Source of the DNA: Isoetes taiwanensis
Lineage: Eukaryota; Streptophyta; Lycopodiopsida; Isoetales; Isoetaceae
NCBI GenBank assembly: GCA_021234155.1
Contig: JAJEKV010000051.1
Location: 7,354,761-7,418,760, forward strand
Length of the DNA: 64,000 nucleotides
Reading direction: 5' to 3'
A program made the position numbers and the translations under genes. The notes beneath the pieces are model-generated. The model worked only from the letters and a program-made list of their open reading frames with translations. It was not told the origin of the DNA and made no database searches. Positions 12,409 to 54,754 of the stretch are shown one piece after another (position 1 is the stretch's first letter; the number at the start of each line of letters is the position of its first letter).

Positions 12409-12462
12409 TATGGAGTTTTATAATAATAGATTTAAGATTTTTTTAACTACGAACATACCGCC

Positions 12463-14245
12463 ACTCACTAGTAACCGAATATACCGCGCTCAGATATGGG
12501 CAAACGCTGGGCAGATCTGAAGGGCATGACATTCATCTTCAAAAGTGCCCTGGTGGCAACACTGACAAAGCCTCTCCTCCCGTGCTTCCCGAGTCCAACG
12601 CTCTGTCTCAATGCGGAGACGATGTGCACCCGTGCGAATGGAAGCTATAAGGCTGCGCTTCTTCATGGGCAAATGGGTGTATACGCACTGGTGTGGGCCT
12701 CTCGTGAGGTTAGGATTGACTTGCTGCAGATAGTGTGCCAGCTTGACGTGCGTCAGAGCATCTGCATCCCAGAGCTTACGAAGGAAAATAGCATCTAGGT
12801 ACAGCTTTAGTGCATTGTGATCCTTCTTTGTCCGTACCTGTACGCATCTATTTACCTGTACACCCCAACGTGAAAACCACTGAGCTTGCTTGTCCTTCCA
12901 ACAGGATTTGAGGCGTTGGGGACCCATTGCTACAGCCAAAGTAAGTTTGGCAAACGTGTATCACCCATAGCGACCACCTTTTGGAAGTAAATAATATGGT
13001 GTTCTAATGCAGCCCATTGAAGGGGTGGAAAACCTGTCTCCTGGAGTAGGATCTGGTATCGAACTATGGACTTTACCCCAAGGGCTCGTGCCAAGAAGGC
13101 TTTCTGCACCTGCTCGAGATCATTCCAGGTCGTGAGTGATATCACTGGATCCCACACTTCTGCCCCATACAGGAGGACCGGCTCGACCAAGGCCCTAAAC
13201 AAGTGTGACTGGTGGCCCCAGGCATACAACTTTGCCTTGTGGCTGTTGTTCTGCATGGCATATAGTGCTTTCCAACCCGCCATGACCCGCAACCTGATGG
13301 CAGCATCCCAGTGGGTGGTAGTTGAGAACTCAATCCCCAAGTACTTGTAGGTCGGAGCCACCTCTATATCTTGTCCCTGGTAAGTGATGAGGGAATCCTT
13401 GGCTGACGGGATGACGAAACTAGCAGCACCCTAGTTTTGGCCAAGTTAACTCGCATGCCAGTGAATCGGCAAAAAGTGTCAAAAGCATCCAGGTGACGTT
13501 GCATGTCCTCTGGGGTATAGGCCAGGAGATTGACATCGTCAGCATATACGAGTTGCCGGATTGTGTGATGCATGAGATGGGCACCCGCACCTCCGTACTC
13601 AGAAAGCCAATCTTCCAGCTGGTCAATGTATAGGCCAAAGAGTGTGGAGGAGAGGGGGCAACCCTGACGTACTCCAATACTACTGATTACAGCTATTTTG
13701 ATGATGTTATACGGCCCAAGCATGCCTTGTATAGCCTGTATATTGCATTCTGCAAGTCAAGGGGGGTCCCCTACTACCGCAATTTGTCCCATAACTTGTC
13801 CCGGAGCACTGTGTCAAAAGCTTTTGCGAAATCCACGAAACAACAGTACAGGTTTTGCCGGCGATTTCTGCTATCCTTAATCAGCGTGCGCAGAGTGAAG
13901 ATATGATCAATGGTGGAATGCCTGGGTCGAAAGCCCGCTTGTGTGAGAGCTCGCACATCTGCCTCTTCTGCCCATATTCTCAGCCGCTGCTCAAGGATGC
14001 CAGCCAACAGTTTTGCAAAAAGAGAGCTAACCATAATAGTGCGATAATTGGCTGGGCATTGAGGGTCCCCTGCCTAGTATATGGGCACAACTCTACTAGT
14101 GGTCCACTGCAGGGGGAAGCGTTCTGCAGAGAGGGTATATTTGCTGCTGCCAAACCCAGGACATCCAGGAGAAATTGAGGTACTTTTAACCTTCTGAACG
14201 CGGTCTGCTTTTCTCCGATTTGTTCCAGAGGTAAATTGGCAGTGT
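12463..14245 (-). mobile_element. LINE of the second family, copy 1 (RT to C-terminal zinc finger)
   Basis: Four consecutive minus-strand frames make up the 3' half of a non-LTR retrotransposon ORF2. 14034-13774 holds RT motifs up to 'FVDFAKAFDTV' (motif A). 13723-13364 holds 'GVRQGCPLSSTLFGLYID' and the active site 'LVYADDVNLL'. 13361-12930 holds 'YKYLGIEFS' and 'LLYGAEVWDP', the thumb and downstream region. 12939-12490 is basic and ends with a CCHC-like finger ('LCQCCHQGTFEDECHALQIC'). This motif style is closer to CR1/I-type LINEs than to the L1-like elements elsewhere in the window. It is 5'-truncated near 14245 and frameshifted, with a stop near 14083. Its 3' end is cut at about 12463, so the terminal tail seen in copy 2 (54 kb) is missing here. 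Confidence 0.85.
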
Positions 14246-21136: not shown

Positions 21137-24100
21137 ATGAGCATCACATTCAGTTATGCCCCAGCTCATTTGCTGCATATCCAGGGCTGTGGTGACAGAA
21201 AAGCACTGAAAGAAGAAAAGGTCATATATGACTACGTTACCAAAACTGTATCACTTTACAAGGTTTCCACATTAAACATTGTTATCAGCATGTACGCTGG
21301 GTGTAGGGGTATAGGCAATGCTCAAATGGTATTTGACAGCATAAATGAGCATAATTTGCTTTCCTTTAGTGCTATGATTGGAGGACATATTAAGAGTGGA
21401 CATGGCAATCAGGCTATAGAGCTCTTCCAACAGATGAAGGTAGAAGGAATGAGGCCTGACAAAGTAACATTTATTTATGCTCTCAAAGCCTGCAGCAACC
21501 TGGGATCCTCAGAGCTGGGGAAATGGGTGCATGCCAGTATACTGAACGAGAAATTCGAATTAGATATCTTTGTGGGCACGACACTTGTTGACATGTATGC
21601 CAAAAGTGGAAACATCAGTTATGCTCGTCAAGTGTTTGATAGGATGTATGCACATGATGTTGTCTTGTGGACCGCCATGATTACAGGGTATGCCAAGTGT
21701 GGGGATGGGAAAGAGGCGCTTAGACTGTATATGAAAATGCAAGAGGAAGGCTTGAAAGCAAATAGAGTTACACTGTTAAGTGCCCTTGGCGCCTGTGGCA
21801 GCATAGCTCATGGACACGAGGGGAAACGAGAACATGCCTGCATCTTAAAATTTGGATGGGAGGCAGATGTCTCTGTAGGAAACACGATCATTGATATGTA
21901 CACCAAATCTGGCAACATAGAAGAAGCGCACCTGGTGTTTCTAACTATGCCAATGTGGGATGTGGTCACTTGGACTGTGATGATTGCTGCATATGGTCAT
22001 TATGAGAATGGAAGTAATGCATTACTGCTGTTTATGGAAATGATGCAACATGGTGTACACCCTAATAGGATTACATTTTCCAGTGCCCTAAGTGCGTGCA
22101 CATGCATGTCCTCACTAGCGCAAGGGAAAAGGGTGCATGCCACCATTATAAGTGCTGGATGCAATGCAGATGTTGTTTTGGCAAATTCAGTAATTGATAT
22201 GTATGGAAAATGTGCCAGCTTACATTGTGCGCGTGAGGTATTTGATAGAGTTATTGGACGGAATGTTGTTTCTTGGAACACAATTATTGGGTCCTACATT
22301 GGTCGAGGGAAAACTAAAGAGGCTTGTGTATTCTTATGGGAGATGCAACATGAAGGGGTAAAACCAGACAGCATCACACTGCTTAATGTTCTCATTGCAT
22401 CTCCTGGCTTGAAAGATATAGAAAGGATACATAGCTATGTGGCAAGTACAAACTATAACTCGGATGTTGTTGTGAAAAGTGTGCTTGTTGATGCATATGC
22501 TAAACGGGGGAATGTAGATGCTGCCCGCCAGGTGTTTGACAATATGTTCATCAATATAGTATCTTGGACCTCAGCAATTAGGAAATATGATCCAATTGGT
22601 GATGAAGTGCTGGGAGCTATGGAAGAAAAAGGTGTGAAGTTAATTAAATTTGCCCTTATCAATATTCTTAATGCATGTGCAGCTGTAGGAGCTTTTGAAA
22701 AGGCTAAACAAATTCATGCCTACATTGTTGGGACAGATCATGAGCTGAATGCATTTGTTGGAAGTGCTCTAATTGACATGTATTGTAAATGTGGTAGTAG
22801 AGGAGATGCTTGGGCACTATTAAATAGACTAGGATTAAATAACTTGATTTTCTGGAATGCATTAATTTCGGGATGCCTTCTGTATGGTAAAGATAAGGAG
22901 GCCTTTTATGTCTTTGAACAACTGCAGATTGAAGGCATAAAACCAGACAAGATTACCCTTGTGAATTTACTGAGTGCATGTGCCAACATGGCTGCACTGG
23001 AGCATACAAAATATTGTCATGCCCAGATTGTGCAAGGTGGTTATAACTCAGATGTTCATGTTGCAAGTACACTTGTCCATGCGTACGCAAAATGTCAGAG
23101 TATGGCAGATGCGTCTTTGGTGTTTGGAAGCATGCAAACACATGATGTAATGTCATGGACTGCAATCATCTCAGGACATGCTCGGCACTATGATCGTCCA
23201 GGGATATTGAAGCTATTGGCTCAAATGAAGAAAGAAGAGGTGGACCCGGACAATCTCACGTTTGTAGGTGTCCTGAATGCATGTGCCAATCTGGAAGAAG
23301 GAAAATGGATTCATGCTTGTATTCTTGGGGCCACATGTGAGACTGATTGCATTGTTGCCAGTTTGTTGATTGATATGTATTTTACTTGTGGATGCATTGA
23401 GGAGGCTTGGTGGGTATTCCATCATATGCCAGTACATGATGTCATCATTTGGAATGCAATGATCGCAGGACATGTCCAGCACAGATGTGAAGCTGAAGCC
23501 CTCAAGATGTTCGAATGGATGCAACAGAAGGGAGTGAGAAGTAACCATGCATTGCTGGTTAGTATTCTCAATGCATGCGCCAGTATCATGGCTCTTGGAA
23601 GGGGGAAGAAAATCCATTTAGAAATTGTTAGAAGTGGAATGGAGGCAAATTCATCTGTGTCAAGCGCATTGGTCGACATGTATGCAAAATGTGGGAATGT
23701 TGCAGATGCTCATAAAGTTTTTGAAAGGATGCCTGAACATGATATAGTATCATGGAATACAATGATTGCTGGATATGCGCATCATGGTGATTGCAAAGAG
23801 TCTCTAGAGCTCTTTGAGAAAATGCAGCAGGAACGATTGAGGCCAAATGGTATCACCTTTATGGCTATATTATCAGCATGTTGCCATGGAGGTTTCATAG
23901 ATGAGATACGCTTTTACTTTGATTTAATGAGTCGAGATGTTGATATTATCCCAACAGAGAAACATTATTCTTGTATGGTTGATACCCTTGGGCGAGCTGG
24001 GCATCTTATGGAGGCGCAAAACGTTATAGTTGGAATGCCAAGCCAACCTAGTAGCATGGTCTGGCGCGTTTTTTTTACTGTACGTAAAATACACGAATCT

Positions 24101-24169
24101 TTACAACTAAAAGAGTGCAATTTAGAAAATGATTGGGAATTGGAATATCAGGATCTTTCTGCCTATTGA
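21137..24169 (+). CDS. PLS-class pentatricopeptide repeat protein, intronless, 1010 codons
   Basis: PPR proteins bind organellar RNA one base per repeat; PLS-class members usually serve in mitochondrial or plastid RNA editing. The frame is open throughout and built of repeating units of about 100 residues. Nine such P-L-S triplets can be counted by their conserved 'W.AMI.GY / G..KEAL.L..M' element, for example 'VVLWTAMITGYAKCGDGKEA' (about residues 175-194) and 'IVSWNTMIAGYAHHGDCKES' (about 870-889). The intervening 'ALIDMYAKCGN.EDA..VF' type segments are equally regular. The last unit enters the usual C-terminal segment ('HYSCMVDTLGRAGHLMEA') but then diverges. The E/E+ and DYW domains that normally follow are missing, so the protein would need a partner deaminase or is C-terminally truncated. 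The first ATG has no strong N-terminal targeting peptide, so an upstream exon is possible. Codon pattern is uniform with no stops, supporting a live gene. Confidence 0.9.
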   Translation: MSITFSYAPAHLLHIQGCGDRKALKEEKVIYDYVTKTVSLYKVSTLNIVISMYAGCRGIGNAQMVFDSINEHNLLSFSAMIGGHIKSGHGNQAIELFQQMKVEGMRPDKVTFIYALKACSNLGSSELGKWVHASILNEKFELDIFVGTTLVDMYAKSGNISYARQVFDRMYAHDVVLWTAMITGYAKCGDGKEALRLYMKMQEEGLKANRVTLLSALGACGSIAHGHEGKREHACILKFGWEADVSVGNTIIDMYTKSGNIEEAHLVFLTMPMWDVVTWTVMIAAYGHYENGSNALLLFMEMMQHGVHPNRITFSSALSACTCMSSLAQGKRVHATIISAGCNADVVLANSVIDMYGKCASLHCAREVFDRVIGRNVVSWNTIIGSYIGRGKTKEACVFLWEMQHEGVKPDSITLLNVLIASPGLKDIERIHSYVASTNYNSDVVVKSVLVDAYAKRGNVDAARQVFDNMFINIVSWTSAIRKYDPIGDEVLGAMEEKGVKLIKFALINILNACAAVGAFEKAKQIHAYIVGTDHELNAFVGSALIDMYCKCGSRGDAWALLNRLGLNNLIFWNALISGCLLYGKDKEAFYVFEQLQIEGIKPDKITLVNLLSACANMAALEHTKYCHAQIVQGGYNSDVHVASTLVHAYAKCQSMADASLVFGSMQTHDVMSWTAIISGHARHYDRPGILKLLAQMKKEEVDPDNLTFVGVLNACANLEEGKWIHACILGATCETDCIVASLLIDMYFTCGCIEEAWWVFHHMPVHDVIIWNAMIAGHVQHRCEAEALKMFEWMQQKGVRSNHALLVSILNACASIMALGRGKKIHLEIVRSGMEANSSVSSALVDMYAKCGNVADAHKVFERMPEHDIVSWNTMIAGYAHHGDCKESLELFEKMQQERLRPNGITFMAILSACCHGGFIDEIRFYFDLMSRDVDIIPTEKHYSCMVDTLGRAGHLMEAQNVIVGMPSQPSSMVWRVFFTVRKIHESLQLKECNLENDWELEYQDLSAY

Positions 24170-32775: not shown

Positions 32776-33799
32776 TTGCACTATGGCCTATAGAATAGTA
32801 AAGCGAGTTAATCACTTTCTTTCAAATATGCAAACTATTGAGTCATTTGCAACATGCAGCAAAACAAAGCTACAGATGTCAAGAATGGCTTCAAATTAAT
32901 GTATGCAATGAGACCTTTTCAAGGTAAACTTTAGCAGCCTTGTTGGTTAACATAATCTTTCCTTTCTCAACAATAATGAATCATCAACTGATTAAAATTG
33001 GACAGAAAAACTACCTATATTATTGGGGACTTCTCATTTGCTTCAAACTTTGGAAGGCCACTGGAATTGTCGGTTCAAGTTTGCTTATGCTTCAGTAAAT
33101 TCTCAGCAAAATACTTGCCATCAAAATCAAGATCAACCAGCTTACAGATAATTGTCATCCAAATCATTTCAATCCATAAATTTTTCTCGCTCTTATTCGA
33201 TCAGCCGTATCAAAGTATTTTTCCTGAATCGCCTGTTGGCTTTCCAGTATCATGGCTCGATTAAAGAGCATAGGCTATCACTCCCTGTCATATGCTGTCA
33301 TAGATCTTGAAGGTCTTTACATGCTTGCTTGGCGAAAACGATTGCCAGACTTCTAGAATCAAGACAAAAACCAAAGCATCCCCTGTGGCAAACAAAAGAT
33401 TTACCTCACTAAGTTTGTAGATCCCAGCGCGGCTATGCCCAAGAGGTTGATGCATGAAATAAAAGAAACCTAAAACTATATAGGAAAAATATTCCTACAA
33501 GTAAAACACAGAGAGAACAGAAGAAATAAACACTACAAGTGCCCAACAGGGGCGCTACTCTAGAAATATCAAGCTACACTAACCACCCATCTGAGTTCCT
33601 GCTGGATCCGTTGTCATTTGGTGCTTCCATCTTCCCTGGACTTGGCGCTCAGCTCGGGACACACCGGTAAAGGTGTTTGGCAAAGGTGGGCGCTCAGCTC
33701 CTGCTTCTCTTGGACGATTTTGGGAGTCAATCAGGGCTAGGGGTCAAGTTGGTGACCCAAATTGGAACTTCCCATGCTGGCCAATCGAATTAGGCCAGG
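32621..33799. other. No gene recognised; long poly(A) run
   Basis: An uninterrupted A35 run at 32738-32772 suggests the tail of a plus-strand retroposon. A short plus frame at 32998-33264 lacks a domain. 'ggcgctcagctc' occurs twice (33645, 33689) in a GC-richer stretch next to the retrotransposon. Confidence 0.4.
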
Positions 33800-33989
33800 T
33801 GGCGCTCCCCTAAATAGCCAATTAGTCCAATTCAAATAATTGGATAATTATCCTTTAATGGTTAATTTAACATAGCTAATTAAATCCCTTTTAGGTCAAT
33901 GTCAAAATACCCCATGGTGGCGTACCTTTGTTGGTGACGTGTCAGCATATTATTTATACGTATTCCGTATAAATACATGGAACGTCACA
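33800..33989 (-). repeat. 3' LTR, 190 bp
   Basis: Matches the 5' LTR at every position except four mismatches, all in its outer 12 bases (33802, 33803, 33810, 33811). On the minus strand it begins TGTGACG after the polypurine tract and ends CA. Confidence 0.92.
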
Positions 33990-34000
33990 TTCTCCCCACC
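33990..34000 (-). other. Polypurine tract
   Basis: On the minus strand 'GGTGGGGAGAA' immediately precedes the 3' LTR's TGTGACG. This is the plus-strand primer site used in reverse transcription. Confidence 0.85.
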
Positions 34001-34473
34001 TTAGAAGTAATGTTGTCCTCAGCATTGGGGTTAGTTAATCAGAGACAGTTATTTGAAGAAACTGAAGTAGGAGAATAACTCATTATTTCAAACAGTAATA
34101 CATTGAAGTTGAAAATATATCCGAGTGCAAGCATCAAAGTGGATTTTACAGACTTATCATCAAAGAAAATTCAATTTTCAAGACATCTTAGACGACGAAA
34201 ATAACACATGTAAACAAAGCGGATCTGAAGAAGTCGGGCCATCAGCAACCCTCTATACATGGGCAGGTCACGAACTGCTCACTGGCCTGCGCATGTCGAT
34301 ATATCAGTATGTATAAATAGTATAAATAAATTGTGGTTGAAGGGACCACCCCCTATAATGAATAAAAGAAATTCTATCTACAAGGGAACTTATCATGCCT
34401 ATGGTTCGCAATTCATTGCGGCGTAAGGAATGGTCAAGTTCCTATTATAGCCAAGATGAACGCGGCCTATGAA
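34001..34473 (-). other. 3' untranslated part of the retrotransposon
   Basis: Lies between the chromodomain frame and the polypurine tract. No open frame worth calling and no env-like gene seen. Confidence 0.6.
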
Positions 34474-34794
34474 CTACATGCTTTCCAGGCAATTCGCGGT
34501 CATGTCCACATTGACAGTACACCACGTCCTAGGGAACACGAAGGTGATCCCATCATCGGTAACTATTGTTAAGTACGATGCATCTACCCCTCTAGTGCAT
34601 GATTCTCGGCGAACCAAGCCTTCAAGCTTACCGCCGGGAGCGGGGTTGATAGTATCGTTGATGGTGCGGCCTTGAGATTTGCGCATGAAGTCCGGATAGT
34701 GCTTCTCAAGGTCTATTTCCATTACCCACGTAGCATCCTCAACTGGCAAGTGTTTCCACTTGACCAAGTATTGCAGCATTTGGGTCCTTCTGGT
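34474..34794 (-). pseudogene. Retrotransposon chromodomain (end of pol)
   Basis: 'YLVKWKHLPVEDATWVMEID' is a clear chromodomain core, the fold that reads methylated H3 tails and steers chromovirus integration into heterochromatin. It continues the integrase frame after the TAG at 34797-34795, where a Gln codon (CAG) would be expected. About 65 further residues follow the domain, with no recognised motif. Confidence 0.8.
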
Positions 34795-35640
34795 CTATTT
34801 ATATGCTCGATCAAGAAGAGCTTCAGGCACTATATCTAAATGCTCTTCTGTCATTTCAAGTAGGGTGGGTGTATCCAAGATCTCCTCTGGATCTGGGGTG
34901 TGCTGCTTTAGAAGACTCACATGAAAGACCTTGTGGATCTTCAAGCGGGGTGGCAATTCCAGGCGATATGCCTGTTCCCCAACACGTTCAGTGATCTTGA
35001 ACGGCCCAGCCCATCTAGGTGCCAGCTTTTTGCAGTTGCCAATCTTAAGCTTGGCTTGTTTTACCTTAATCTTAAGCCAAACCGATTCACCCACCTGGAA
35101 GACTCGTGGGGTCCTGTGCTTATCGGCTATACTCTTCTGGCGACTGCGTGCAGCCAATAAGTACCCACGTACTTCATCAACCAAAGCTTGCATTTCCAAG
35201 AGGAGTTGTTGAGAAACCTCCACTTTAGAAACGGGGTTATGCCATGTGTCTGGAGTAAGGCATTGATAACTATAATTTATCATGAAGGGAGACATTTTGG
35301 AAGATTCCTGTTTCATACTGTTATAGGCAAATTCGACCAGATAAATATAGTCAGCCCATTGGTATTGCTTACTCCACACATAACTTCGTAGCATATCCTC
35401 TATAATACGATTGGTACGCTCAGTCTGACCATCCGTCTGAGGATGATATGCCGTACTCATAGCAAGCTTGGTCTGGATGGTAGCAAAGAAATCTTTCCAG
35501 AAGGCACTTACGAATTTGGGATCCCTGTCGGATACAATAACTCGTGGCATTCCGTGCAACCTGAAGATCTCCTTTGCAAATAGCAGCGCGGTATCAAAGG
35601 CTGTGTCCGTGGTCCGACATGGCAAGAAATGAGCCATTTT
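34795..35640 (-). pseudogene. Integrase core and C-terminal domain
   Basis: Retroviral-type integrase joins cDNA to the chromosome. Seen here: 'MAHFLPCRTT', 'VSDRDPKFVSAFWKDFF' (second catalytic Asp), 'STAYHPQTDGQTERTNR' (catalytic Glu of DDE), and the C-terminal 'VWLKIK...LAPRWAGPFKI' and 'KIHKVFHVSLLKQH' (GPF/Y-like module). The first catalytic Asp lies in the preceding frame ('VITMDFIVGLP'), separated by the TAA at 35643-35641. The frame ends at TAG 34797-34795 just before the chromodomain. Confidence 0.9.
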
Positions 35641-36885
35641 TTACAATTTGTCGACCACTACCATCAATGCATCGTATCCACGGAGAGTACGTGGAAGGCC
35701 CACAATGAAATCCATGGTTATCACTTCCCACTTAGCATTGGGTACTTCCAGCGGTTGCAACTCTCCTGGAATCCTTAATTGCTCAGCCTTGGTTTGTTGA
35801 CACACTTGACACTGCTTAATGTACCTGGCAATGTCCTTCTTCATCGAAGGCCAGAAATAACTGGAGCGGATCTTAAAGTAGGTCTTCATAAAACCTGCAT
35901 GTCCAGCTATAGGGTTGTTGTGCGTGTCATGAAGAATTAGCTTACGTACTCCTGAAGTCTCAGGTACACACAACTTATCTTTGTAATATAACAAGTTGCC
36001 TTCTTTCTTATACGAACGAAAAGCTTCGCGTTCTTTATCTGTGCGTGCTTCCTTAGCCAAACTAACCCAAACATCACGGAATTCGGGATCTGTGGCCAAG
36101 GTCTGTTCTATCTGTTTCCCAAACTCACTGGTGAGTGTAGAAATTGTATTATAATGGGTTCGGGTTACCAAGGGATGGCGTGACAAGGCATCCGCAACCA
36201 CATTGTGTTTTCCAGGCTTATACATAATCTCAAAGTCATATTCCTCGAGAAACTCCATCCATCTTCTCTGACGGAGATTGAGATTGGGCTGGGTTATTAG
36301 ATAACGGAGACTCTGATGATCCGTATCCAGCTGGAATCTTCTACCAAGAAGGTAGTGTCTCCATATACGCAGAGCACGAACAACGACTAACAGTTCCTGA
36401 TCATGGGTAGGGTATCGCTGCTCAGTTTCGTTCATTTTCTTTGAATCATAGGCAATGACCCTCCCCTCCTGCATTAGGACTCCACCAGTGGCAATCTTAC
36501 TGGCATCCGTTGCCACTAATTTATCCTTTTCAGGATCGGGCAATGTGAGGACTGGTGCTGACGTTAAAGCATCTTTAAGCTGCTGGAAACTTCCCTGGAC
36601 CTTTGCTTTCCAATGCTCAATCCAATCCTTCACCTTCTCATGCTTTGTAAGATTAGTAAGAGGTGCTGCAATCTTTGCAAAATCCTTAACAAATTTCCGA
36701 TAATATCCTGCCTCGGAAACATTACCTGGAATAGGCCATTCCCTTACTGCCTCTATCTTCGCCGGATCTGTAGCAATTCCCTCTGCTGAAATGACATGTC
36801 CCAAATAATCCACCTTCGGAGTGGCAAACTTGCACTTACAGAACTTGGCAAAGAGTTGGTGACGTCTTAACTTTTGTAGGGCCAA
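35641..36885 (-). pseudogene. RNase H and integrase N-terminal domain
   Basis: Begins with the RT connection region 'KVDYLGHVISAEGI'. Then comes Ty3-type RNase H ('LVATDASKIATGGVLMQ', 'YPTHDQELL', 'LDTDHQSLRYL', 'VVADALSRH'). The integrase zinc-binding HHCC domain follows ('LILHDTHNNPIAGHAGF' to 'CQVCQQTK') and then the first catalytic Asp of integrase ('VITMDFIVGLP'). A one-base deletion near 36875 (T run) puts it out of frame with RT. It ends at TAA 35643-35641, where related elements have Ser or a similar residue before 'KMAHF'. Confidence 0.92.
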
Positions 36886-38657
36886 CGAAGATGTTGCTCA
36901 TGCTCCTCCAAGGTTTTACTATAGATGAGAATGTCGTCAAAGAAAATAACAACAAAATCATCCAAGTATTGTCGGAAGACATCATTCATCAATCGCATGA
37001 AGGTTGCGGGGGCATTAGTTAATCCAAAAGGCATAACAGTAAATTCATAATGCCCATATCTAGTGCGAAAGGCAGATTTATGGATGTCCTCCTCCTTAAT
37101 TCTGATCTGATGATATCCGGAGCGTAAATCAATCTTTGAAAAATGCTTGGCCCCTTGCAACTGGTCCATTAGATCATCTGCCCTAGGCAAAGCATAGCGA
37201 TTCTTGATGGTATGTTTATTGAGCTGCCTATAATCAATACACATCCTCAAGGAGCCATCCTTTTTCGTAACAAAAAGGATAGGAGCTCCAAAAGGCGAAA
37301 CACTAGGTCGAATGAAGCCTAAGTTTAATAACTCCTGAAGTTGCTTCTTAAGCTCTGCCAATTCAGGGGGACTCATACGGTACGGGGCCTTACTGGTAGG
37401 CTTGGTACCTGGTTCTAAAGCTATTTCACATTCTACTCCTCTAAAAGGAGGAAGTTTCTGGATCTCATCTGGGAAAAGATCGCTAAATTCTCGGAGAAGA
37501 TTAGCAATGCTCTCTGGCAAGGTGTCAATTACTTGCTTCTGTTTAGCATCTGACTCAATGGAGGCAAGTCTAATGACGCAGAGGAGCTTGTTCTTGTGTA
37601 TAGCTTTTTCTAACTTCCTGAGGGACATAGACTGCATAATAGGGTTAAATGGATCACCTTTTATAGTGACGCGGGCTCCGTTAGCGGCGTTGAAGGTAAC
37701 TTCCCGTTTCTCGCAGTCTATATTGGCTTTTGCAGATGCCAAGAATTCCATACCAACAATAAGATCATATTTGCCAATATCCATTATCTCGGCACCCAAG
37801 GCAACTGGTGCACCTGGCAACTGCATCTTAAGGTTAATGCGACGGCCATGAGTGTGTCTGATCTTACCACTGGCTAGAGTGACAGGCTTCGGTCGGGATC
37901 TCAAAGTTTCAAGCCGTAATACCTGGGCCATTCTAGGAGAAGCAAAATTATGTGTACTACCCGTATCCATCAGAACTATAAAAGGTTTGCTATCTACTTG
38001 ACCTATGGTGGAAATAACGGCAGGCTGACTTTCAGCATTGCCGGTTTCAATGGTTGCAAGGATATGGGACTCAGCGTGAATGTACTCGGGAGCCTCCTCC
38101 TCGACAGGTAGTGTAGACTCGAGATCGTCCCAATCGAGGTCGGCCATGGCCAGCTGGGCAGTCTGTGTGATATAAGGGCAATTCTGCATGTAGTGCCCAG
38201 GCCGCATGCACCTGTAACATGCTTTGTCTCTGCGTAGCTGTTCGCGGGCCTCTTTGGGAATAGACTGTAAGAGGTTCCAAACTTCCTTACCGACGTTATT
38301 CGATTTGTCGGGCATGTTGAAGGTGACTTTCTTTTCCTGGCGGCCGTAAGAGTTCTGCTGAGAGGGCCCCGGACTTGGTGAGCGGGGTTTGTAAGGTGTG
38401 GACGGGCGTGGCTGCGAGTAAGGGGCAGGACGCTGGTACTGGTTTCTTGGTGTGTCCTCCTCGAGGCTCAATGCCTTAGCCTCAGCCTCTGCAACTGATT
38501 TTGGGTCTATGGCCTTAACCATTCGTTTAATTGATGGGGCCAACCCTTCAATGTAGCCCTCCACCGCCCTCTTTTCATTCATTCCTGGCACATACAGCCT
38601 CAAGCGCATGAATTCATCAGTGTAGGCCTGAACTGACATGCCCTTCTGCTCTAACCT
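36867..38657 (-). pseudogene. Gag C-terminus, protease and reverse transcriptase
   Basis: Numbering from the Met at 38639. The end of the capsid-like gag domain comes first. A zinc knuckle '[14 protein letters not shown]' is at residues 141-154. The aspartic protease has '[13 protein letters not shown]' with catalytic Asp at 225. RT runs from about residue 395: '[19 protein letters not shown]', '[17 protein letters not shown]', '[14 protein letters not shown]' (motif A Asp), '[18 protein letters not shown]', and '[11 protein letters not shown]' (catalytic Asp pair). The active site reads FFDD where most Ty3 elements have FVDD or YVDD. The frame then shifts at about 36875 into stops. It is continuous with the upstream gag frame apart from the TAG at 38660-38658. 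Confidence 0.93.
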
Positions 38658-39353
38658 CTAAAAGGTCTGGATTTGTTGGCATTTATGTGCACGAGGCACA
38701 TAATGCGACTTAAAAGCTTTGGCAAACTTCCGGGACTTGCATCTGCTTCTATCCAGATGCTTGGCTCTGGCATAGCCCTTCCACCAAATACGGGCAGCTT
38801 CTGTAAGGTTTGTGGTGGCAACCTTTCCTGTATCCTTTTCTGTCATGCCATAGGATTTTCCAAACTCCTTCATCTCGTCCAACCAGGACTCTGCATTCAG
38901 CCCGCCTCTAGATTTCCCATCAAACTGGGCCAATTTCCTGTTTTTCCATATACTGGTTATGGCCGTATCAACCGTCTTACGGTACTCTTTGTCCCGGCGC
39001 TTTGCATGGTCACCAGATGATCCAGACGTCTCAGAGGACACAGAAGTGGCTGATGGTGAAGATGTAGCACTATCCCTTGAGGAACTTCGATGGCGTTTGG
39101 AACGGCGCTTCCTTCGTGCAGGTACAGGGCTTGGTTCAGGTGCAAGTGGCTGCTGGGGTGGTGGACTTGGCGGTAACGGGGGTAACTCCGGCCCATTCTC
39201 CTGCATAGGCTGCGGTGGGTTGGCATTCAAGACATAAGTTTGCAGCTCAACTAACTGTCGCTTCATCAACAGTAATTCTTGCTCCGGTGTTAATCTGCTA
39301 GCATTCGAGGGTGTCTGCCACGGGCCGTTACGTGCACCGTCTATAGTGAGCAT
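38658..39353 (-). pseudogene. Gag N-terminal and capsid region
   Basis: 231 codons from ATG at 39353. A proline-rich segment (about residues 45-78), a Lys/Arg/Ser-rich stretch ('RRKRRSKRHRSSSRDS') and then the Retrotrans_gag-type domain ('AQFDGKSRGGLNAESWLDEM', 'KVATTNLTEAARIWWKGY') come before the frame ends at TAG 38660-38658. The same frame resumes with '[16 protein letters not shown]', so the stop interrupts one ancestral gag domain. Confidence 0.85.
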
Positions 39354-39438
39354 AAAAAGGTATAAGGAGACACTTTACATTGGGCAATTTTTTTCCAATT
39401 CACACATAACATAGAAAACAAAACTGAGTGGACCAGGC

Positions 39439-39801
39439 CTAGGGGCTCGCGAAAGGGTACAAGATAGAGTAGCGAACGCTCTCGCGTACAGCTCTCACTA
39501 ACTTGTAGCGAGCCCAGGCCTGGACGATAACAGGTTGGTAATCCAGTGTGGGGCTGATGATGAGGAGATTAAAGAGCCTTCTCAAAGCATAGAAAATCTG
39601 CCACAAGTGATCGTTGGCGTCAGCAAAAGCTTCATGCCTTGTCATGTCCCAATAGTCCCATGTTCGGCGAAGAGTTTGCTGTAAGTCCTCAAAGGCCCGT
39701 TCTCTAAGAATGTTAACTACTGCCAAGCCCTTAGTGGGATCATAGGGCTCCCCGTACCGTTGGCCGTAGTCCTGTTCGGGGGGCCTGGATCGTCCCTTCA
39801 T
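39439..39801 (-). CDS. Retrotransposon accessory ORF, 120 codons, unknown function
   Basis: Opens with ATG at 39801 and stays open to 39439. Composition is basic and aromatic-rich, predicted helical ('FEDLQQTLRRTWDYWDM', 'LWQIFYALRRLFNLL'). It lies in sense orientation between the long second frame and gag, about 85 bp before the gag ATG. No family recognised. It may be a small structural or accessory protein, or a fragment of an extended gag. Confidence 0.5.
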   Translation of the reverse strand: MKGRSRPPEQDYGQRYGEPYDPTKGLAVVNILRERAFEDLQQTLRRTWDYWDMTRHEAFADANDHLWQIFYALRRLFNLLIISPTLDYQPVIVQAWARYKLVRAVRESVRYSILYPFASP

Positions 39802-40069
39802 ATCTGGTTGGTGATTCTTTCTTCACATTCTACGAGTCCCTCGTCTGCAAGACGGTAGGAATGAATATAGAACATTGAACGATTTTCTTATACTCTAAAC
39901 TCTAATAGATACAAGGACGCATCATGGAAAGAAACAATTTAATTGTATTCATTAATACAATAATCATAATTGATAAGAAGATGGCACATCATAATTTATA
40001 AAATGGCTAAAGAAAATGCCAACCGAAAATTTACAACTATACGCAGTACAAGATGCGTAATACAAATAT
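39802..40069 (-). other. Non-coding spacer in the retrotransposon
   Basis: AT-rich stretch between two accessory frames. No open frame. It may include a secondary promoter or splice site, but none is clear. Confidence 0.5.
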
Positions 40070-40750
40070 CTAAGAACTAGGTCCCTCCTCTTCGTCCATA
40101 GGCCGAGGAGGTGGTGGCGGCGGTCGATGTTGTAACAGAGTCACCCCTGGGTCTACTGTGGCAGCTGCAATGGAGGCAACCTCTGGCGGATAGGCAACAG
40201 CCAATGGGGCTGCCGTAAGGAGTTTCATACTCATCCAGGGTGCAATATCCTGCCCCAAGGCCGTTAGGGCAAGATCCCGTCGTACGAGTACGTAAGTAAG
40301 CGTACGATAGGGAAGCTTCTTGTGCCCTGCCAATGTGGAAAGAGCATGGAGGGTCCACCATGAAGCCTCGGCCTCTGGCCCTAAGTCCCGGGCTACAAAA
40401 AGAACTTGGCCCTGCCGAAAAGCTGATAGGAAGAAGCGAGTGACGTGGTTTCCCAATACTTTTCCTTGCGGAGTCTCTGACGTGGCAACCTCCTTATCCA
40501 AGTCCATAGGGACTTCTTCTTCCTTGAATTCCTGCTGCTCTTCCTTCAAATGAGCAGAATTATGGTATAAATCCTCTCCCTCCTCATCCGAACTGGAGGG
40601 AACTTCGACCATATTAATGTTTGGGACATGAGGCCCCATAGCGGTAAAGGCATCCGGTGAAGGCTGAGATGGCGGATCCTGCATCACCAGTTCCCGAAGC
40701 CGTAGCAAAGTCTCAGCTGGCTCAATGGTCTCCTGGTGGAATTGGAGTAA
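40070..40750 (-). pseudogene. Retrotransposon accessory ORF 2, second half
   Basis: Continues in the same frame after TAG 40753-40751. An acidic, Glu/Asp-rich segment ('EVPSSSDEEGEDLYHN', 'EEQQEFKEEEVPMDLD') is followed by a folded-looking domain ('GNHVTRFFLSAFRQGQVLFV', 'ASWWTLHALSTLAGHKKLPY') and a proline-rich end ('RPPPPPPRPMDEEE'). No recognised family. Since the frame is preserved on both sides of the stop, it was probably one protein of about 465 residues, or it is expressed by readthrough. Confidence 0.5.
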
Positions 40751-41467
40751 CTACTGCACCTCCTGGGGAAGGTCAATAGGAGCAAAGTCGATGAAATCAT
40801 CCATACAGTACTCCGCTAACTCATAGAGTACATGGTCCTTGCGCCGGCGCTTAAACCCGGCCACCATGTGATAGGTCCAGATGATATCATCCAAGAGAAG
40901 ATATTCTTGCCCTTGGTGATACACAACTGGAAGGGCGTCTAGCCCGGACAAGCGTGCAGCTTGTTCCCGACGTGGTGGCATCTCTTCTGCCAACTGCTTC
41001 CAGCGGGCGAAGTCACCCATGCCTATATGCTCTTCTTCCTCCTCGGAAGGCTCAGGAAGTTTGCCTTTCTCTACTGGCAATGTCTCATCCTCAACGTACT
41101 GATCCATGAGGATGGCTAGGGCAAAAGCAACTTCAAGGTATTGTCGCCCCTGGTGCTGCACAACTGGCAAGTGCTTTCCCCATCTAAGCTTACCCTTCAA
41201 CACATCATATGCGTGGGTGTCACCCCCTAGCATATCTTGGACTACATCCCGTTCTAGATACAACTGGGGAGGTTCCCCAAGAGGAATACACAGAGGAAGC
41301 ATCTCCTCTGTATAAAACTCTAGGAATCCGGCATAGTCTGGGTGCCGCTGCATATTAGTGATGAGGTCAAGGCGCTGGCATAGAAAGGGCCATAACAGGT
41401 CGAAGGACACTTGCGGATCCCAATGCTCTCCATCCTGGTACCATGCAAGTAGGTCGGTGGCAGCCAT
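40751..41467 (-). CDS. Retrotransposon accessory ORF 2, first half, 238 codons
   Basis: From ATG at 41467 ('MAATDLLAWYQDGEHWDPQV') to TAG at 40753-40751. It contains two related segments, 'LPVVQHQGRQYLEVAFALAI' and 'LPVVYHQGQEYLLLDDIIWT', about 90 residues apart, which suggests an internal duplication. Acidic stretch in between ('EPSEEEEEHIGMGDF'). No known domain recognised. Because it is always in sense with gag-pol and between LTR and gag, it is part of the element, not a passenger in antisense. Function unknown. Confidence 0.55.
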   Translation of the reverse strand: MAATDLLAWYQDGEHWDPQVSFDLLWPFLCQRLDLITNMQRHPDYAGFLEFYTEEMLPLCIPLGEPPQLYLERDVVQDMLGGDTHAYDVLKGKLRWGKHLPVVQHQGRQYLEVAFALAILMDQYVEDETLPVEKGKLPEPSEEEEEHIGMGDFARWKQLAEEMPPRREQAARLSGLDALPVVYHQGQEYLLLDDIIWTYHMVAGFKRRRKDHVLYELAEYCMDDFIDFAPIDLPQEVQ

Positions 41468-41660
41468 GGGCGCTGGAAGGGAGGAGGGAGGAAGAGAAAC
41501 AGATATACACAAATGAAAATGAAACTTAAAAGATCCTTTTAACCCTTTATTTATGCTGACGTCAGCATTTTCGTACACATTACAAGGACAAAAGGTTTTT
41601 TTTTTTTTATTTAATATATCAAAAAAAAATATTTACAATGCAAATATTCTCCAAAATTTG
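41468..41660 (-). other. Spacer between H3 ORF and accessory ORF 2
   Basis: AT-rich with two homopolymer runs (T near 41598, A near 41622). No coding sense. It could act as an internal promoter or translation spacer. Confidence 0.4.
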
Positions 41661-42431
41661 CTAAGGACGCCTGGGGGCGAGGGCTAAATCCTTTGGCATT
41701 ATGGTGACTCTCTTTGCGTGAATAGCGCAAAGATTTGCATCACCAAAAAGTGCCACCAGGTAGGCTTCCGCAGCCTCTTGGAGTGCTAGGATGGCAAAAG
41801 TCTGGAAGCGGAGGTCGGTTTTAAACTCTTGGGCTATCTCGCGAACCAACCTTTGAAAAGGCAGCTTCCGTATCAGAAGTTGCGTGGACTTCTGAAACTT
41901 ACGGATCTCCCGTAAGGCCACGGTGCCGGGTCTATACCGGTGAGGCTTCCTTTGTGGAACAGGGTTGGGAGGCGGGCCCCTTTGCCGTGGTATGGTCTTG
42001 CCCCCAACAACTGGACGGGCCTGGGAGGCATCCACCCTTTCCTGCCTCCGGCTGGTACTTGCGTTCTTCCCAAAAGCTCCGACAGTCTTCAACTTCTCCT
42101 TGTACTGGCTGGCCGATTTTCGGGCTACGGCTTTCCTCCGATGCTTAATGGGCGTCCTTTCCGTCGGGTTTGGCCCTTGCTCATCCTCTGGTCCCCCATT
42201 ACCCTGCTGGTCCGGCTGTTCTTGTCGGGCCTTCTCCTCCTTTTCCTTTTGAATCCTTTCCTGCTCCTCCCGGAACTCCCGAGCTCTCCTGAGGTCTTCT
42301 TCAATCTCATTGTACCGTCTCTCAACAATGCGGCGAAGGAGTTCCGCATGATAACGATCGGGTCGCTGGTTCATATCAATCTGGATTGTCGTTAAATAAT
42401 CCAGGCTGATGTCCGGAATTTCTCCCCACAT
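41661..42431 (-). CDS. Retrotransposon ORF with C-terminal histone H3 domain, 256 codons
   Basis: Residues 161-256 (41951-41664) are a histone H3 core: '[20 protein letters not shown]', then the alpha-N and alpha-1 region '[20 protein letters not shown]', alpha-2 '[20 protein letters not shown]', and '[20 protein letters not shown]'. Only the last few residues of H3 are missing or altered. Loop 1 has canonical H3 length, unlike centromeric CENH3, and 'KPHRYRPGT' is canonical. The first 160 residues replace the H3 tail: a charged coiled-coil-like part ('[20 protein letters not shown]'), then a basic, Gln/Pro-rich tail. No ARTKQTARKS-type N-terminus is present, so normal tail marks such as K4 and K9 are absent. 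It reads in the same frame as the ORF upstream, separated only by TAG 42458-42456. Histone H3 normally forms a tetramer with H4. Incorporation of the element's protein into nucleosomes or DNA packaging in the particle are hypotheses only. Confidence 0.88.
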
Positions 42432-42455
42432 GAAGCTCTGGGAGGCTTCATGCCA

Positions 42456-42914
42456 CTAATATGGGGGAATCTCGATGGCCCTGCCATCAATGACGGCGAC
42501 TCCATCTCCAAGGTACCTGTATTCCCTACCTCGAGCCGCCGTGTCGGCTCGTTCTATCTCTCTGCAGTCATCCTCTCTGGCCAAGTTCCGGATACGGTCG
42601 GCCTCTGTTCTTATGTCCTCCTCTTCAGTGTGTCCCTCGCATTCGGGAGGGTAAAATTTAATTAGCATCATGACCAAGTCAGGTTGCTCGGCCATGGTAT
42701 AAGGGAGCTGTCGGAGATTCAGTCTGACCAAAAACGGCTCCGAGTAATGGTAGATTGGATAGGGTATCCTATCGTTGTTAGCAAATCTGTTTACCAACTC
42801 ATCCAAAAGTATGTCAATCAAGGCAGGGTCAGTAGCCATATGCCGGGCGATCAAAGCATAGATCTGGGCTATAGTAAGGGTAGTGGGGTCCATGGTGCTC
42901 TTGGTGTTGGCCAT
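42456..42914 (-). CDS. N-terminal half of the H3-containing retrotransposon ORF, 152 codons
   Basis: Begins at ATG 42914 in a good context (GTAATGGCC), the first ATG with a long frame after the leader. The sequence is helical and acidic, with segments 'IAQIYALIARHMATDPALID' and 'REDDCREIERADTAARGREY'. No family recognised. It ends with TAG 42458-42456; the same frame continues through '[15 protein letters not shown]' into the H3 domain, so the ancestral protein was probably about 417 residues with H3 at its C-terminus. Confidence 0.6.
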   Translation of the reverse strand: MANTKSTMDPTTLTIAQIYALIARHMATDPALIDILLDELVNRFANNDRIPYPIYHYSEPFLVRLNLRQLPYTMAEQPDLVMMLIKFYPPECEGHTEEEDIRTEADRIRNLAREDDCREIERADTAARGREYRYLGDGVAVIDGRAIEIPPY

Positions 42915-43560
42915 TACTATGGCGCTGGGGTCGACAGACGGCGGGAAGGAGGCGCTGGTGGTTAAGGCGACGATAGGGGAGGCGCTAGGGTAAGAGAAAG
43001 CAGTAGGGATAAACTAGGGTGGAAAGGCAAGGTCGGGTCCGGTGGATATGGCGGTCGTCCAGCTTAGTGGGCGGAGGTGCAGAAGGCAAGGCGGACATAA
43101 TAATTTTAACGGCCGCCTAACTTTTGAATTTTTTTTTAAAAAAAAAAAATATTTATACGGCGGGAATACGCGAAAATATACGGTCGGGCGCCGACAGCAT
43201 TATACGCGCTCCCACCGTGACTGCAAGTCGACGAAAATCAAGCGGCGCCCGAGTTGACTTTCGGGGCCCCTCTGTGGCCCTTTTTCGCCAGCGACGACTG
43301 TTCTAGGGTATTTGGGTTACACCCGATCCAATGGAGCCGTTTCCGCCTTCGTCCAAGCTACCTACAACATGTTATAGCCCCTCCAAACTTGGGTCTTCTA
43401 GTCGCCCTAACTTCTTTAAACCTACATTTTCTTACTTTAACCTAACACAAAGCCAAGCATAAAAGAAAACTAAGCCACACACTAGATTAGCCTCCTACCT
43501 AACTAACGAACTACGAGTTAGGGTTTGGCCAGTGCTATGATTCCAGGCAACTAAAATCAC
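42915..43560 (-). other. 5' leader of the retrotransposon
   Basis: About 645 bp between primer site and first ATG. It has an A/T homopolymer block at 43129-43149 and several short frames on either strand with no domain. Packaging or dimerisation signals may lie here, but none can be named. Confidence 0.5.
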
Positions 43561-43573
43561 GGCTCTGATACCA
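43561..43573 (-). other. Primer binding site, initiator Met tRNA
   Basis: On the minus strand 'TGGTATCAGAGCC' lies three bases after the 5' LTR. TGGTATCAGAGC is the well-known plant initiator-Met tRNA complement. Confidence 0.92.
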
Positions 43574-43576
43574 TTG

Positions 43577-43766
43577 TGATGCTCCCTAAAATAGCCAATT
43601 AGTCCAATTCAAATAATTGGATAATTATCCTTTAATGGTTAATTTAACATAGCTAATTAAATCCCTTTTAGGTCAATGTCAAAATACCCCATGGTGGCGT
43701 ACCTTTGTTGGTGACGTGTCAGCATATTATTTATACGTATTCCGTATAAATACATGGAACGTCACA
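43577..43766 (-). repeat. 5' LTR, 190 bp, with TATA box
   Basis: On the minus strand it runs TGTGACG...CATCA. It contains a TATA-like GTATAAATAA (about 43729-43738), the ACGT-core palindrome TGACACGTCA (43714-43723) that bZIP factors could bind, and a palindrome ATTTATACG...CGTATAAAT (43730-43752). It would drive the H3 ORF and gag-pol transcript. Confidence 0.92.
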
Positions 43767-54050: not shown

Positions 54051-54754
54051 TTTTTTAGCGTCCAAGGAGACCGATTGGCCTATGGGACCCAAACAAAAAG
54101 AGAGCAGCAAGCGTATTACTGACAGGATTAAAAAACCCCCGCCCCCAAGGGTTTTCGAGGGAAAAACCTTAGCAGTAATAAGTATGCTGGCACGCTATAC
54201 AATTGTATAGGGCAGTTCAATACCGTCCCGGAGGACACAATGAGTCCGTGCATCCATAACCTCCTGGAGGTATGACCCCAACAAACCCACTGACTCCGTA
54301 TTCAATAACTCATGCAACGGTTGGCCAGGCACTAGTAATCGAACATACCGCTCTCGGATATGGGCAAACGCTGGGCAGATCTAGAGGGCATGACATTCAT
54401 CCTCAATGGCGCCCTGGTGGCAACACTGGCAAAGCCTTTGCTCTCGTGCTTCCCGACCCCAACGTCATGTCTCAGTGCGGAGGCGATGTGCACCCGTGCG
54501 AATGGAAGCTATAAGTCTGCGCTTCTTCATGGGCAACTGGGTGTACAAGTACTGGTGTGGGCCTCTCGTGAGCCTAGGATTGACTTGCTGCTGATAGTGT
54601 GCCAGCTTAACGTGCGTCAGAGCATCTGCATCCCAGAGATTGCGAAGGAAAGTAGTATCTAGGTATAGCTTAAGTGCCTTGTGATCTTTCTTTGTCCTTA
54701 CATGTACGCATCTGTTTGCCTGTACACCCCAGCGTGAGAACCACTGAGCTTGCT
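54051..54754 (-). mobile_element. LINE of the second family, copy 2, 5'-truncated
   Basis: Minus-strand 54754-54250 matches the 3' coding end of the element at 12.5-14.2 kb, including the basic region and remains of the C-terminal finger. Below 54250 is its 3' UTR, which ends 'GGACGCTAAAAAATCT' and the (TCTAT)n tail. It is cut off exactly at 54754 by a short 5' truncation and inserted into a SPAG6-like exon. No target duplication is obvious. Confidence 0.88.

What the first reader, a model, noticed from the sequence alone, without database searches (positions are those of the whole stretch)
41661..42914. Histone H3 fold built into a Ty3/gypsy retrotransposon
Seen: a sense-strand frame between the 5' LTR and gag ends in about 96 residues that align with almost the whole H3 core ('[20 protein letters not shown]' to '[12 protein letters not shown]'). 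Known: chromoviruses read histone marks through a chromodomain, and this element has one; I know of no standard Ty3/gypsy architecture with its own H3. Inference: capture of a host H3 cDNA or exon, kept as part of an about 417-residue element protein. The product might enter nucleosomes at target sites, tether the integration complex, or package nucleic acid. The H3 N-terminal tail is replaced, so usual tail modifications are impossible.
Basis: partly seen in the sequence, partly recalled or inferred. Interest (0 to 1): 0.95.

Follow-up and report, generated by a model that had tools for sequence, protein, structure and literature searches.

The report
Retrotransposon carrying its own histone H3
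In a quillwort-like genome, hundreds of copies of a jumping element carry their own version of the DNA-packaging protein histone H3, whose core selection has kept almost unchanged, so the element probably uses it to work with or around the host's chromatin.

Summary
On the minus strand, a Ty3/gypsy element with a chromodomain (33798-43766) has a first ORF (42914-41661) ending in an H3 core (41688-41948; Pfam 5.7e-38). This copy is damaged: an in-frame stop and a broken C-terminus. The genome holds at least 224 places with the element-type H3 region, on 97 contigs. One divergent copy is a 12,997-bp element with two LTRs and a 5-bp target duplication around the H3 ORF. Among 42 copies the H3 core has dN/dS 0.039 (0.023-0.061) in deep comparisons, near the host's own H3 genes (0.021). 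Synonymous sites against host H3 are saturated, so the capture is old. Two deeper lineages match the window copy at only 29-46% elsewhere in the ORF but at 87-92% in the H3 core. A passive passenger is excluded. A histone built into nucleosomes is the likeliest role; that step is inferred. Nine full-text searches of open-access papers showed no retrotransposon encoding a core histone.

The parts
43575..43766 (-). 5' LTR of this copy, 192 bp, TGTGACG...CATCACA; its ends resemble those of the ~1.56-kb LTR of the copy in L048-L050 but it is much shorter
   Evidence: direct repeat 33799-33990/43576-43767, 98%; sequences
43562..43573 (-). primer binding site TGGTATCAGAGC (initiator-tRNA-Met type, recalled)
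   Evidence: sequence; exact motif in 20 of 29 other copies
41661..42914 (-). ORF-H3, first ORF of the element, 417 codons from ATG, interrupted here by TAG at 42456-42458
   Evidence: same frame in other copies
42159..42914 (-). N-terminal and middle region of ORF-H3, no homologue found outside the family
41949..42158 (-). basic linker or tail, 70 aa, 19 K+R and 3 D+E
41688..41948 (-). histone H3 core, H3 numbering K37-D123, 87 codons
40070..41467 (-). second extra ORF (ORF0b + ORF0c, split here by TAG at 40751-40753), no Pfam match
39439..39801 (-). third extra ORF (ORF0d), no significant Pfam match
36867..39374 (-). gag, protease, reverse transcriptase (TAG at 38658-38660; frame change near 36897)
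34477..36897 (-). RNase H, integrase, chromodomain (stops at 35641-35643 and 34795-34797)
33798..33989 (-). 3' LTR (outer end not exact), preceded in element sense by purine tract GGTGGGGAGAA

Best explanation
This is an LTR retrotransposon family (Ty3/gypsy by domain order, with a C-terminal chromodomain) whose first ORF encodes a histone H3 variant: a family-specific N-terminal region, a basic tail, and an almost complete H3 core. The core was captured as intron-free coding sequence from an H3 of the host lineage, probably H3.3-type, long ago, and selection has kept it in several element lineages. Shown: presence, position inside an element with LTRs and target duplication, copy number, purifying selection, saturation of synonymous sites against host H3. 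Inferred: the protein pairs with host H4 and is deposited in nucleosomes, most likely outside replication, and its extra N-terminal part and altered tail act there, either keeping element chromatin open against silencing or giving the element's integration machinery something to hold.
For: At least 224 places on 97 contigs (from capped lists). Of the 150 best RT matches (a capped list), 38 have a listed H3 place 1.5-11 kb upstream on the same contig, 28 of these at 4.6-5.2 kb (the script did not check the strand of the H3 place). Of 20 drawn at random from the other 112, a script flagged H3 core in 13; one is antisense, leaving 12 in sense, of which one has only the last 22 residues and one is degraded. 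Copy C1036:6070152-6083148: LTRs, PBS, purine tract, 5-bp TSD CTAGC, same gene order. H3 core dN/dS 0.039 (bootstrap 0.023-0.061) over 608 deep pairs of 861, against 0.177 in the 7 most recent pairs; 15 host H3 genes among themselves 0.021. L079: 46% and 31% identity to the window copy in two matched stretches of the rest of the ORF, 92% in the core; L074: 29% in one matched stretch, 87% in the core. Residues recalled as nucleosome or tetramer contacts (R42, R49, R63, R69, R72, R83, C110, H113, K115, R116, T118, K122) are kept in at least 25 of 27 copies. Constraint as tight as in host H3 genes is what a protein that must fit H4, H2A-H2B, DNA and chaperones would show (inference).
Against: No transcript, protein or chromatin data were available. 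No H4 binding was tested. AlphaFold runs were single-sequence and poor (mean pLDDT 45.7 and 50.9). 7 of 20 sampled RT loci had no H3 in the 2.1-kb stretch fetched, two of them (L076, L090) although ORF0b was there: truncation, nested insertions or H3-less elements. The recent-pair ratio (0.177) rests on 7 pairs. The copies read here carry lesions in gag-pol.
Confidence: 0.6

Rival explanations
1. Packaging: the H3 fold, with its basic tail, binds element cDNA or RNA inside virus-like particles and never enters host nucleosomes.
For: The 66-70 residue tail is strongly basic in 42 of 42 copies; the ORF sits next to gag-pol in the element.
Against: A nucleic-acid binder would not need an H3 core kept at 87-92% with saturated synonymous sites, including the H4-facing and H3-H3 residues (roles recalled).
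Confidence: 0.15
2. Decoy: the protein competes with host H3 for chaperones, silencing enzymes or readers, weakening silencing of the element without lasting nucleosome assembly.
For: ARKS, the motif around H3 K9 and K27 (recalled), is in 19 of 42 copies; residues 86-90 read T-F-A-I-L in 42 of 42 copies, unlike the host, and this region is tied to chaperone choice (PMC9145170, passages).
Against: ARKS is not constant (AHKS in 13 of 42, other readings in 10). A decoy need not keep DNA-contact residues.
Confidence: 0.17
3. Passive passenger: a host H3 cDNA picked up once and carried without function.
For: Captured host genes in plant LTR elements are known (PMC7264820, passages). Many individual copies are decaying: 16 of 42 have a stop in the aligned part.
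Against: dN/dS 0.039 in the core, falling as copies get more distant (0.177, 0.133, 0.091, 0.056, 0.039); 87-92% core identity in lineages whose other parts match at 29-46%.
Confidence: 0.02
4. Host gene, assembly or recombination artefact: an ordinary H3 gene happens to lie by an LTR element.
For: The window copy has no matching target duplication and an unusually short LTR.
Against: Same position in many copies; inside LTRs with a TSD in an independent copy; element H3s group together apart from 15 host H3 genes in the core tree.
Confidence: 0.01

Closest known systems
Chromoviruses (Ty3/gypsy with an integrase chromodomain)
   Same: Domain order gag-PR-RT-RH-INT-chromodomain; PBS; LTRs with TG...CA ends; 5-bp TSD in one copy
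   Different: Three extra ORFs before gag, the first encoding histone H3; lineage within chromoviruses not determined
Plant LTR retrotransposons with additional ORFs, including the AlkB-like domain in Phalaenopsis Gypsy elements (PMC7264820, PMC9289625; passages seen)
   Same: Extra sense ORF with a recognisable host-type domain kept through replication
   Different: The domain is a core histone, in first position rather than after pol, and with dN/dS measured against host genes; no histone in the passages found
Single viral histones: bracovirus H4, xenomavirus and NCLDV H3 (PMC9145170; passages seen)
   Same: One core histone taken from a host, close to it in the fold, with an altered tail; thought to join host nucleosomes
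   Different: Those are DNA viruses or their derivatives; here a retrotransposon, and the histone is fused to a long family-specific region. The word retrotransposon does not occur in that review
Plant histone H3.3
   Same: Closest PDB sequence; L90 in 42 of 42 copies and H87 in L073 and L079, as in host gene L065
   Different: N-terminal tail replaced; fixed changes S86T, V89I, G102A, T107A against the host, and F87 in 42 of 42

Membership tests
Ty3/gypsy LTR retrotransposon | LTRs, PBS, purine tract, PR-RT-RH-INT order | tested here: met
Chromovirus | chromodomain after integrase | tested here: met
   PF00385 1.3e-7 at 34477-34794; tblastn match in L049
Chromovirus | placement in a named clade by RT phylogeny | not tested
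   no reference RT set at hand
Histone H3 | histone fold sequence, full core length | tested here: met
   Pfam 5.7e-38; PDB match 5e-49; 87-codon core without gaps against host H3
Histone H3 | canonical N-terminal tail | tested here: not met
   replaced by a 66-70 residue basic linker
H3.3 (replacement type in plants) | T31, Y41, H87, L90 (recalled) | tested here: inconclusive
   L90 in 42 of 42, Y41 in 20 of 42, F87 in 42 of 42; H87 in deeper L073 and L079; position 31 has no counterpart
CENH3 (centromeric H3) | longer loop 1 and divergent core (recalled) | tested here: not met
   core aligns to host H3 without insertion, 86-90% mean identity by clade
Viral single histone incorporated in host nucleosomes | incorporation shown | not testable with these tools
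   needs biochemistry or chromatin profiling

The most novel reading that the evidence does not exclude
A retrotransposon lineage has made its own H3 variant, delivered with its long N-terminal fusion into host nucleosomes, so that the element writes its own chromatin state or landing platform, and has relied on it across lineages old enough for synonymous sites to saturate.
Probability: 0.5. Interest if true: 0.97.

Novelty: new variant of a known kind. Interest (0 to 1): 0.93.

Why it matters
Chromoviruses are known for reading histone marks with a chromodomain; an element that also brings its own nucleosome component would be able to shape the substrate it reads. It gives a natural, long-running experiment on which parts of H3 can change (positions 54, 59, 86-90, 102, 105, 107, 124, 125) and which cannot, and makes the question of how a transposon may counter chromatin silencing testable with one protein. 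It would also extend viral histones, known from DNA viruses, to retroelements.

Tried and rejected
P0001, the strongest database hit (542 bits, Nymphaea), proved to be several H3 sequences in one gene model, not a relative of the ORF. Region 1-164 of the 264-aa frame and an 11-row profile of the N-terminal part found no homologue in the protein database, no PDB sequence below E 3.9, only weak Pfam scores, best 0.016, and no relative in viral contigs. The 22-row alignment made for a fold was not used, since its database rows contain repeated H3s. Two single-sequence AlphaFold models were poor, so no fold search was run. The idea that the window copy's LTR came from an unrelated element (noted) was dropped when the LTR of the L048-L050 copy showed similar ends. 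TAG readthrough was considered for the stop in ORF-H3 and dropped: 28 of 29 other copies have a sense codon there.

Rows dropped before counts: dN/dS left out L001 (same as window), L027 and L028; one search left out these and L036 (frame breaks near the H3 end); the ORF0b control (dN/dS 0.10) used 12 sequences, the window and 11 loci chosen for one full-length match. Codons that are stops were skipped.

Full report
What is in the window. The element lies on the minus strand. Two 192-bp repeats, 98% alike, are its LTRs: 43575-43766 (5') and 33798-33989 (3'). In element sense the 5' LTR is followed by TGGTATCAGAGC (43573-43562) and the 3' LTR preceded by GGTGGGGAGAA. Between them are ORF-H3 (42914-41661), two further ORFs of unknown kind (41467-40070 and 39801-39439), gag and protease/RT (39374-36867), RNase H, integrase and a chromodomain (36897-34477). 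No matching target duplication was seen at this copy (flanks). It is damaged: stops at 42456-42458, 40751-40753, 38658-38660, 35641-35643 and 34795-34797 and a frame change near 36897.

The H3 part. The 264-aa frame matches Pfam Histone at 5.7e-38; the best of 176 PDB sequences is an H3.3 chain, 5e-49. The core, K37-D123 in H3 numbering, is 41688-41948. In the 27 other copies tallied, positions 54 F, 59 Q (26 of 27), 77 E, 86 T, 87 F, 89 I, 90 L, 102 A, 105 G (26 of 27), 107 A, 124 L and 125 A are the family's state. Ahead of the core is a basic stretch of 66-70 residues with 16-20 K+R and 2-4 D+E in 42 of 42 copies; ARKS occurs in 19 and AHKS in 13.

The genome. The genome search gives 1,658,258,908 bases in 1110 contigs. 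The Isoetes taiwanensis assembly is reported as 1658.30 Mb in 204 scaffolds and 909 contigs (PMC8566536, passages). I take the host to be this quillwort or an assembly of it; the identity rests on that match alone.

Copy number. A search with the 264-aa frame scored 145 places, the weakest at 1.1e-110. A search with canonical H3 scored 150: 15 are uninterrupted host H3 genes and 135 are weaker matches; the five of these that were fetched (L066-L070) are of the element type. The union is 224 places, on 97 contigs. Both lists are capped, so this is a lower bound.

Position inside the element. Of the 29 other copies fetched, 20 have the exact PBS motif upstream, and 27 match ORF0b downstream (one, L027, over 62 bases only). 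L023 lacks it there because an inserted element of its own lies between (L046); L009 shows none. A copy of a divergent clade was read in pieces: LTRs with TGTGACG...GTCACA ends (the 3' one about 1.56 kb; aligned parts 96.9% over 858 and 93.3% over 916 positions), a 5-bp target duplication CTAGC, the PBS, then ORF-H3 (482-aa open frame), the other extra ORFs, gag, PR, RT, RNase H, integrase and chromodomain, 12,997 bp in all. Its gag-pol frames are broken.

Starting from RT instead: the 150 best RT matches were listed (capped, all at least 96% identical). 38 have a listed H3 place 1.5-11 kb upstream, 28 of these at 4.6-5.2 kb (strand of the H3 place not checked). 20 were drawn at random from the other 112 and the stretch 3.6-5.7 kb upstream fetched. 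A script flagged an H3 core in 13. One (L075) is antisense, so 12 are in sense; of these L088 has only the last 22 residues and L072 is degraded. 7 show none, although L076 and L090 have ORF0b.

Selection. Pairwise Nei-Gojobori on 42 copies (861 pairs): in the H3 core dN/dS is 0.177, 0.133, 0.091, 0.056 and 0.039 in classes of rising distance; dN stays at 0.010-0.040 while dS rises from 0.06 to 1.03. Bootstrap over codons for the deepest class (608 pairs): 0.023-0.061. The linker gives 0.25 and the middle region 0.097 in the same class, the latter with dS near saturation. ORF0b gives 0.10 in 12 sequences. This decline with distance is what is expected if lineages evolve under constraint while single dead copies decay neutrally. 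16 of the 42 have a stop in the aligned part.

Against the host. 15 host H3 genes have dN/dS 0.021 among themselves; element clades between each other 0.016 (main-mid), 0.037 (mid-divergent) and 0.051 (main-divergent). Between element and host, pS is 0.96, beyond what the correction can handle, and dN is 0.09-0.11: an old capture. The element sequences group together in the core tree; the host sequences did not form one group as rooted there. E77 is shared by 15 of 15 host genes, 28 of 28 main-clade and 10 of 10 divergent copies, but 3 of 4 of the middle clade have Q; the Nymphaea sequence used as query has D. This fits a source in the host lineage. The divergent clade keeps Y54 and E59 as in the host. 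L073 and L079 have H87 and L90 as host gene L065, which also has T31, the recalled signature of plant H3.3. This points to an H3.3-type source, but F87 in 42 of 42 copies of the main sample keeps it open.

Deeper lineages. L079 matches the window copy at 46% over 123 and 31% over 166 residues outside the core but 92% in the core; L074 at 29% over 120 and 87%; L073 has 89% in the core. Their RT is at least 96% identical to the window's, far closer than their ORF-H3. Exchange of the 5' part between elements is one reading; I could not test it.

How it may work. Shown: an element gene with a constrained H3 core. Inferred: with nearly all recalled DNA and histone contacts kept, the protein can pair with H4 and sit in nucleosomes. 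The 86-90 region, tied to chaperone choice (PMC9145170, passages), is changed (T-F-A-I-L). The replaced tail would not carry the usual marks in register. The likely gain is at element chromatin: less silencing, or a platform for integration next to the chromodomain's target. The order of ORFs puts this protein first on the RNA; but 4-9 upstream ATGs lie between the PBS and its start in the 16 copies where this was measured, so how it is translated is open.

What is known. Nine full-text searches were answered; listings and passages showed no retrotransposon encoding a core histone. The library holds only open-licence PMC papers, so this is not proof of absence. The review of additional ORFs has no occurrence of histone (PMC7264820); the orchid AlkB paper mentions histone twice, for chromodomain targets and demethylases (PMC9289625); the viral histone review has no occurrence of retrotransposon (PMC9145170); the two Isoetes genome papers have none of histone (PMC8566536; PMC10541799).

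Noticed in passing
L071-L090, RT list: Elements whose RT is at least 96% identical to the window's carry ORF-H3 versions as far as 29-46% from it outside the core; 5' modules may be exchanged between elements.
   Followed up: partly
40070-41467 and 39439-39801: Two more conserved extra ORFs without Pfam matches; ORF0b has dN/dS 0.10 in 12 sequences.
   Followed up: partly
L046 2658-7541: An insertion with direct repeats of about 1,565 bp (98.3%) sits between ORF-H3 and ORF0b of that copy.
   Followed up: no
43575-43766 and 33798-33989: Window copy has 192-bp LTRs, far shorter than the ~1.56-kb LTR of the copy in L048-L050, with similar ends.
   Followed up: partly
L065: Host H3 gene with T31, Y41, H87 and L90 in an uninterrupted frame; the other 14 host hits have S87 or T87 with L90.
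   Followed up: no
21137-24166 +: Open frame of 1010 aa that reads like a pentatricopeptide-repeat protein (from reading only).
   Followed up: no
12460-12759 and 54324-54623: 300-bp direct repeat, 89% alike, 41.9 kb apart.
   Followed up: no
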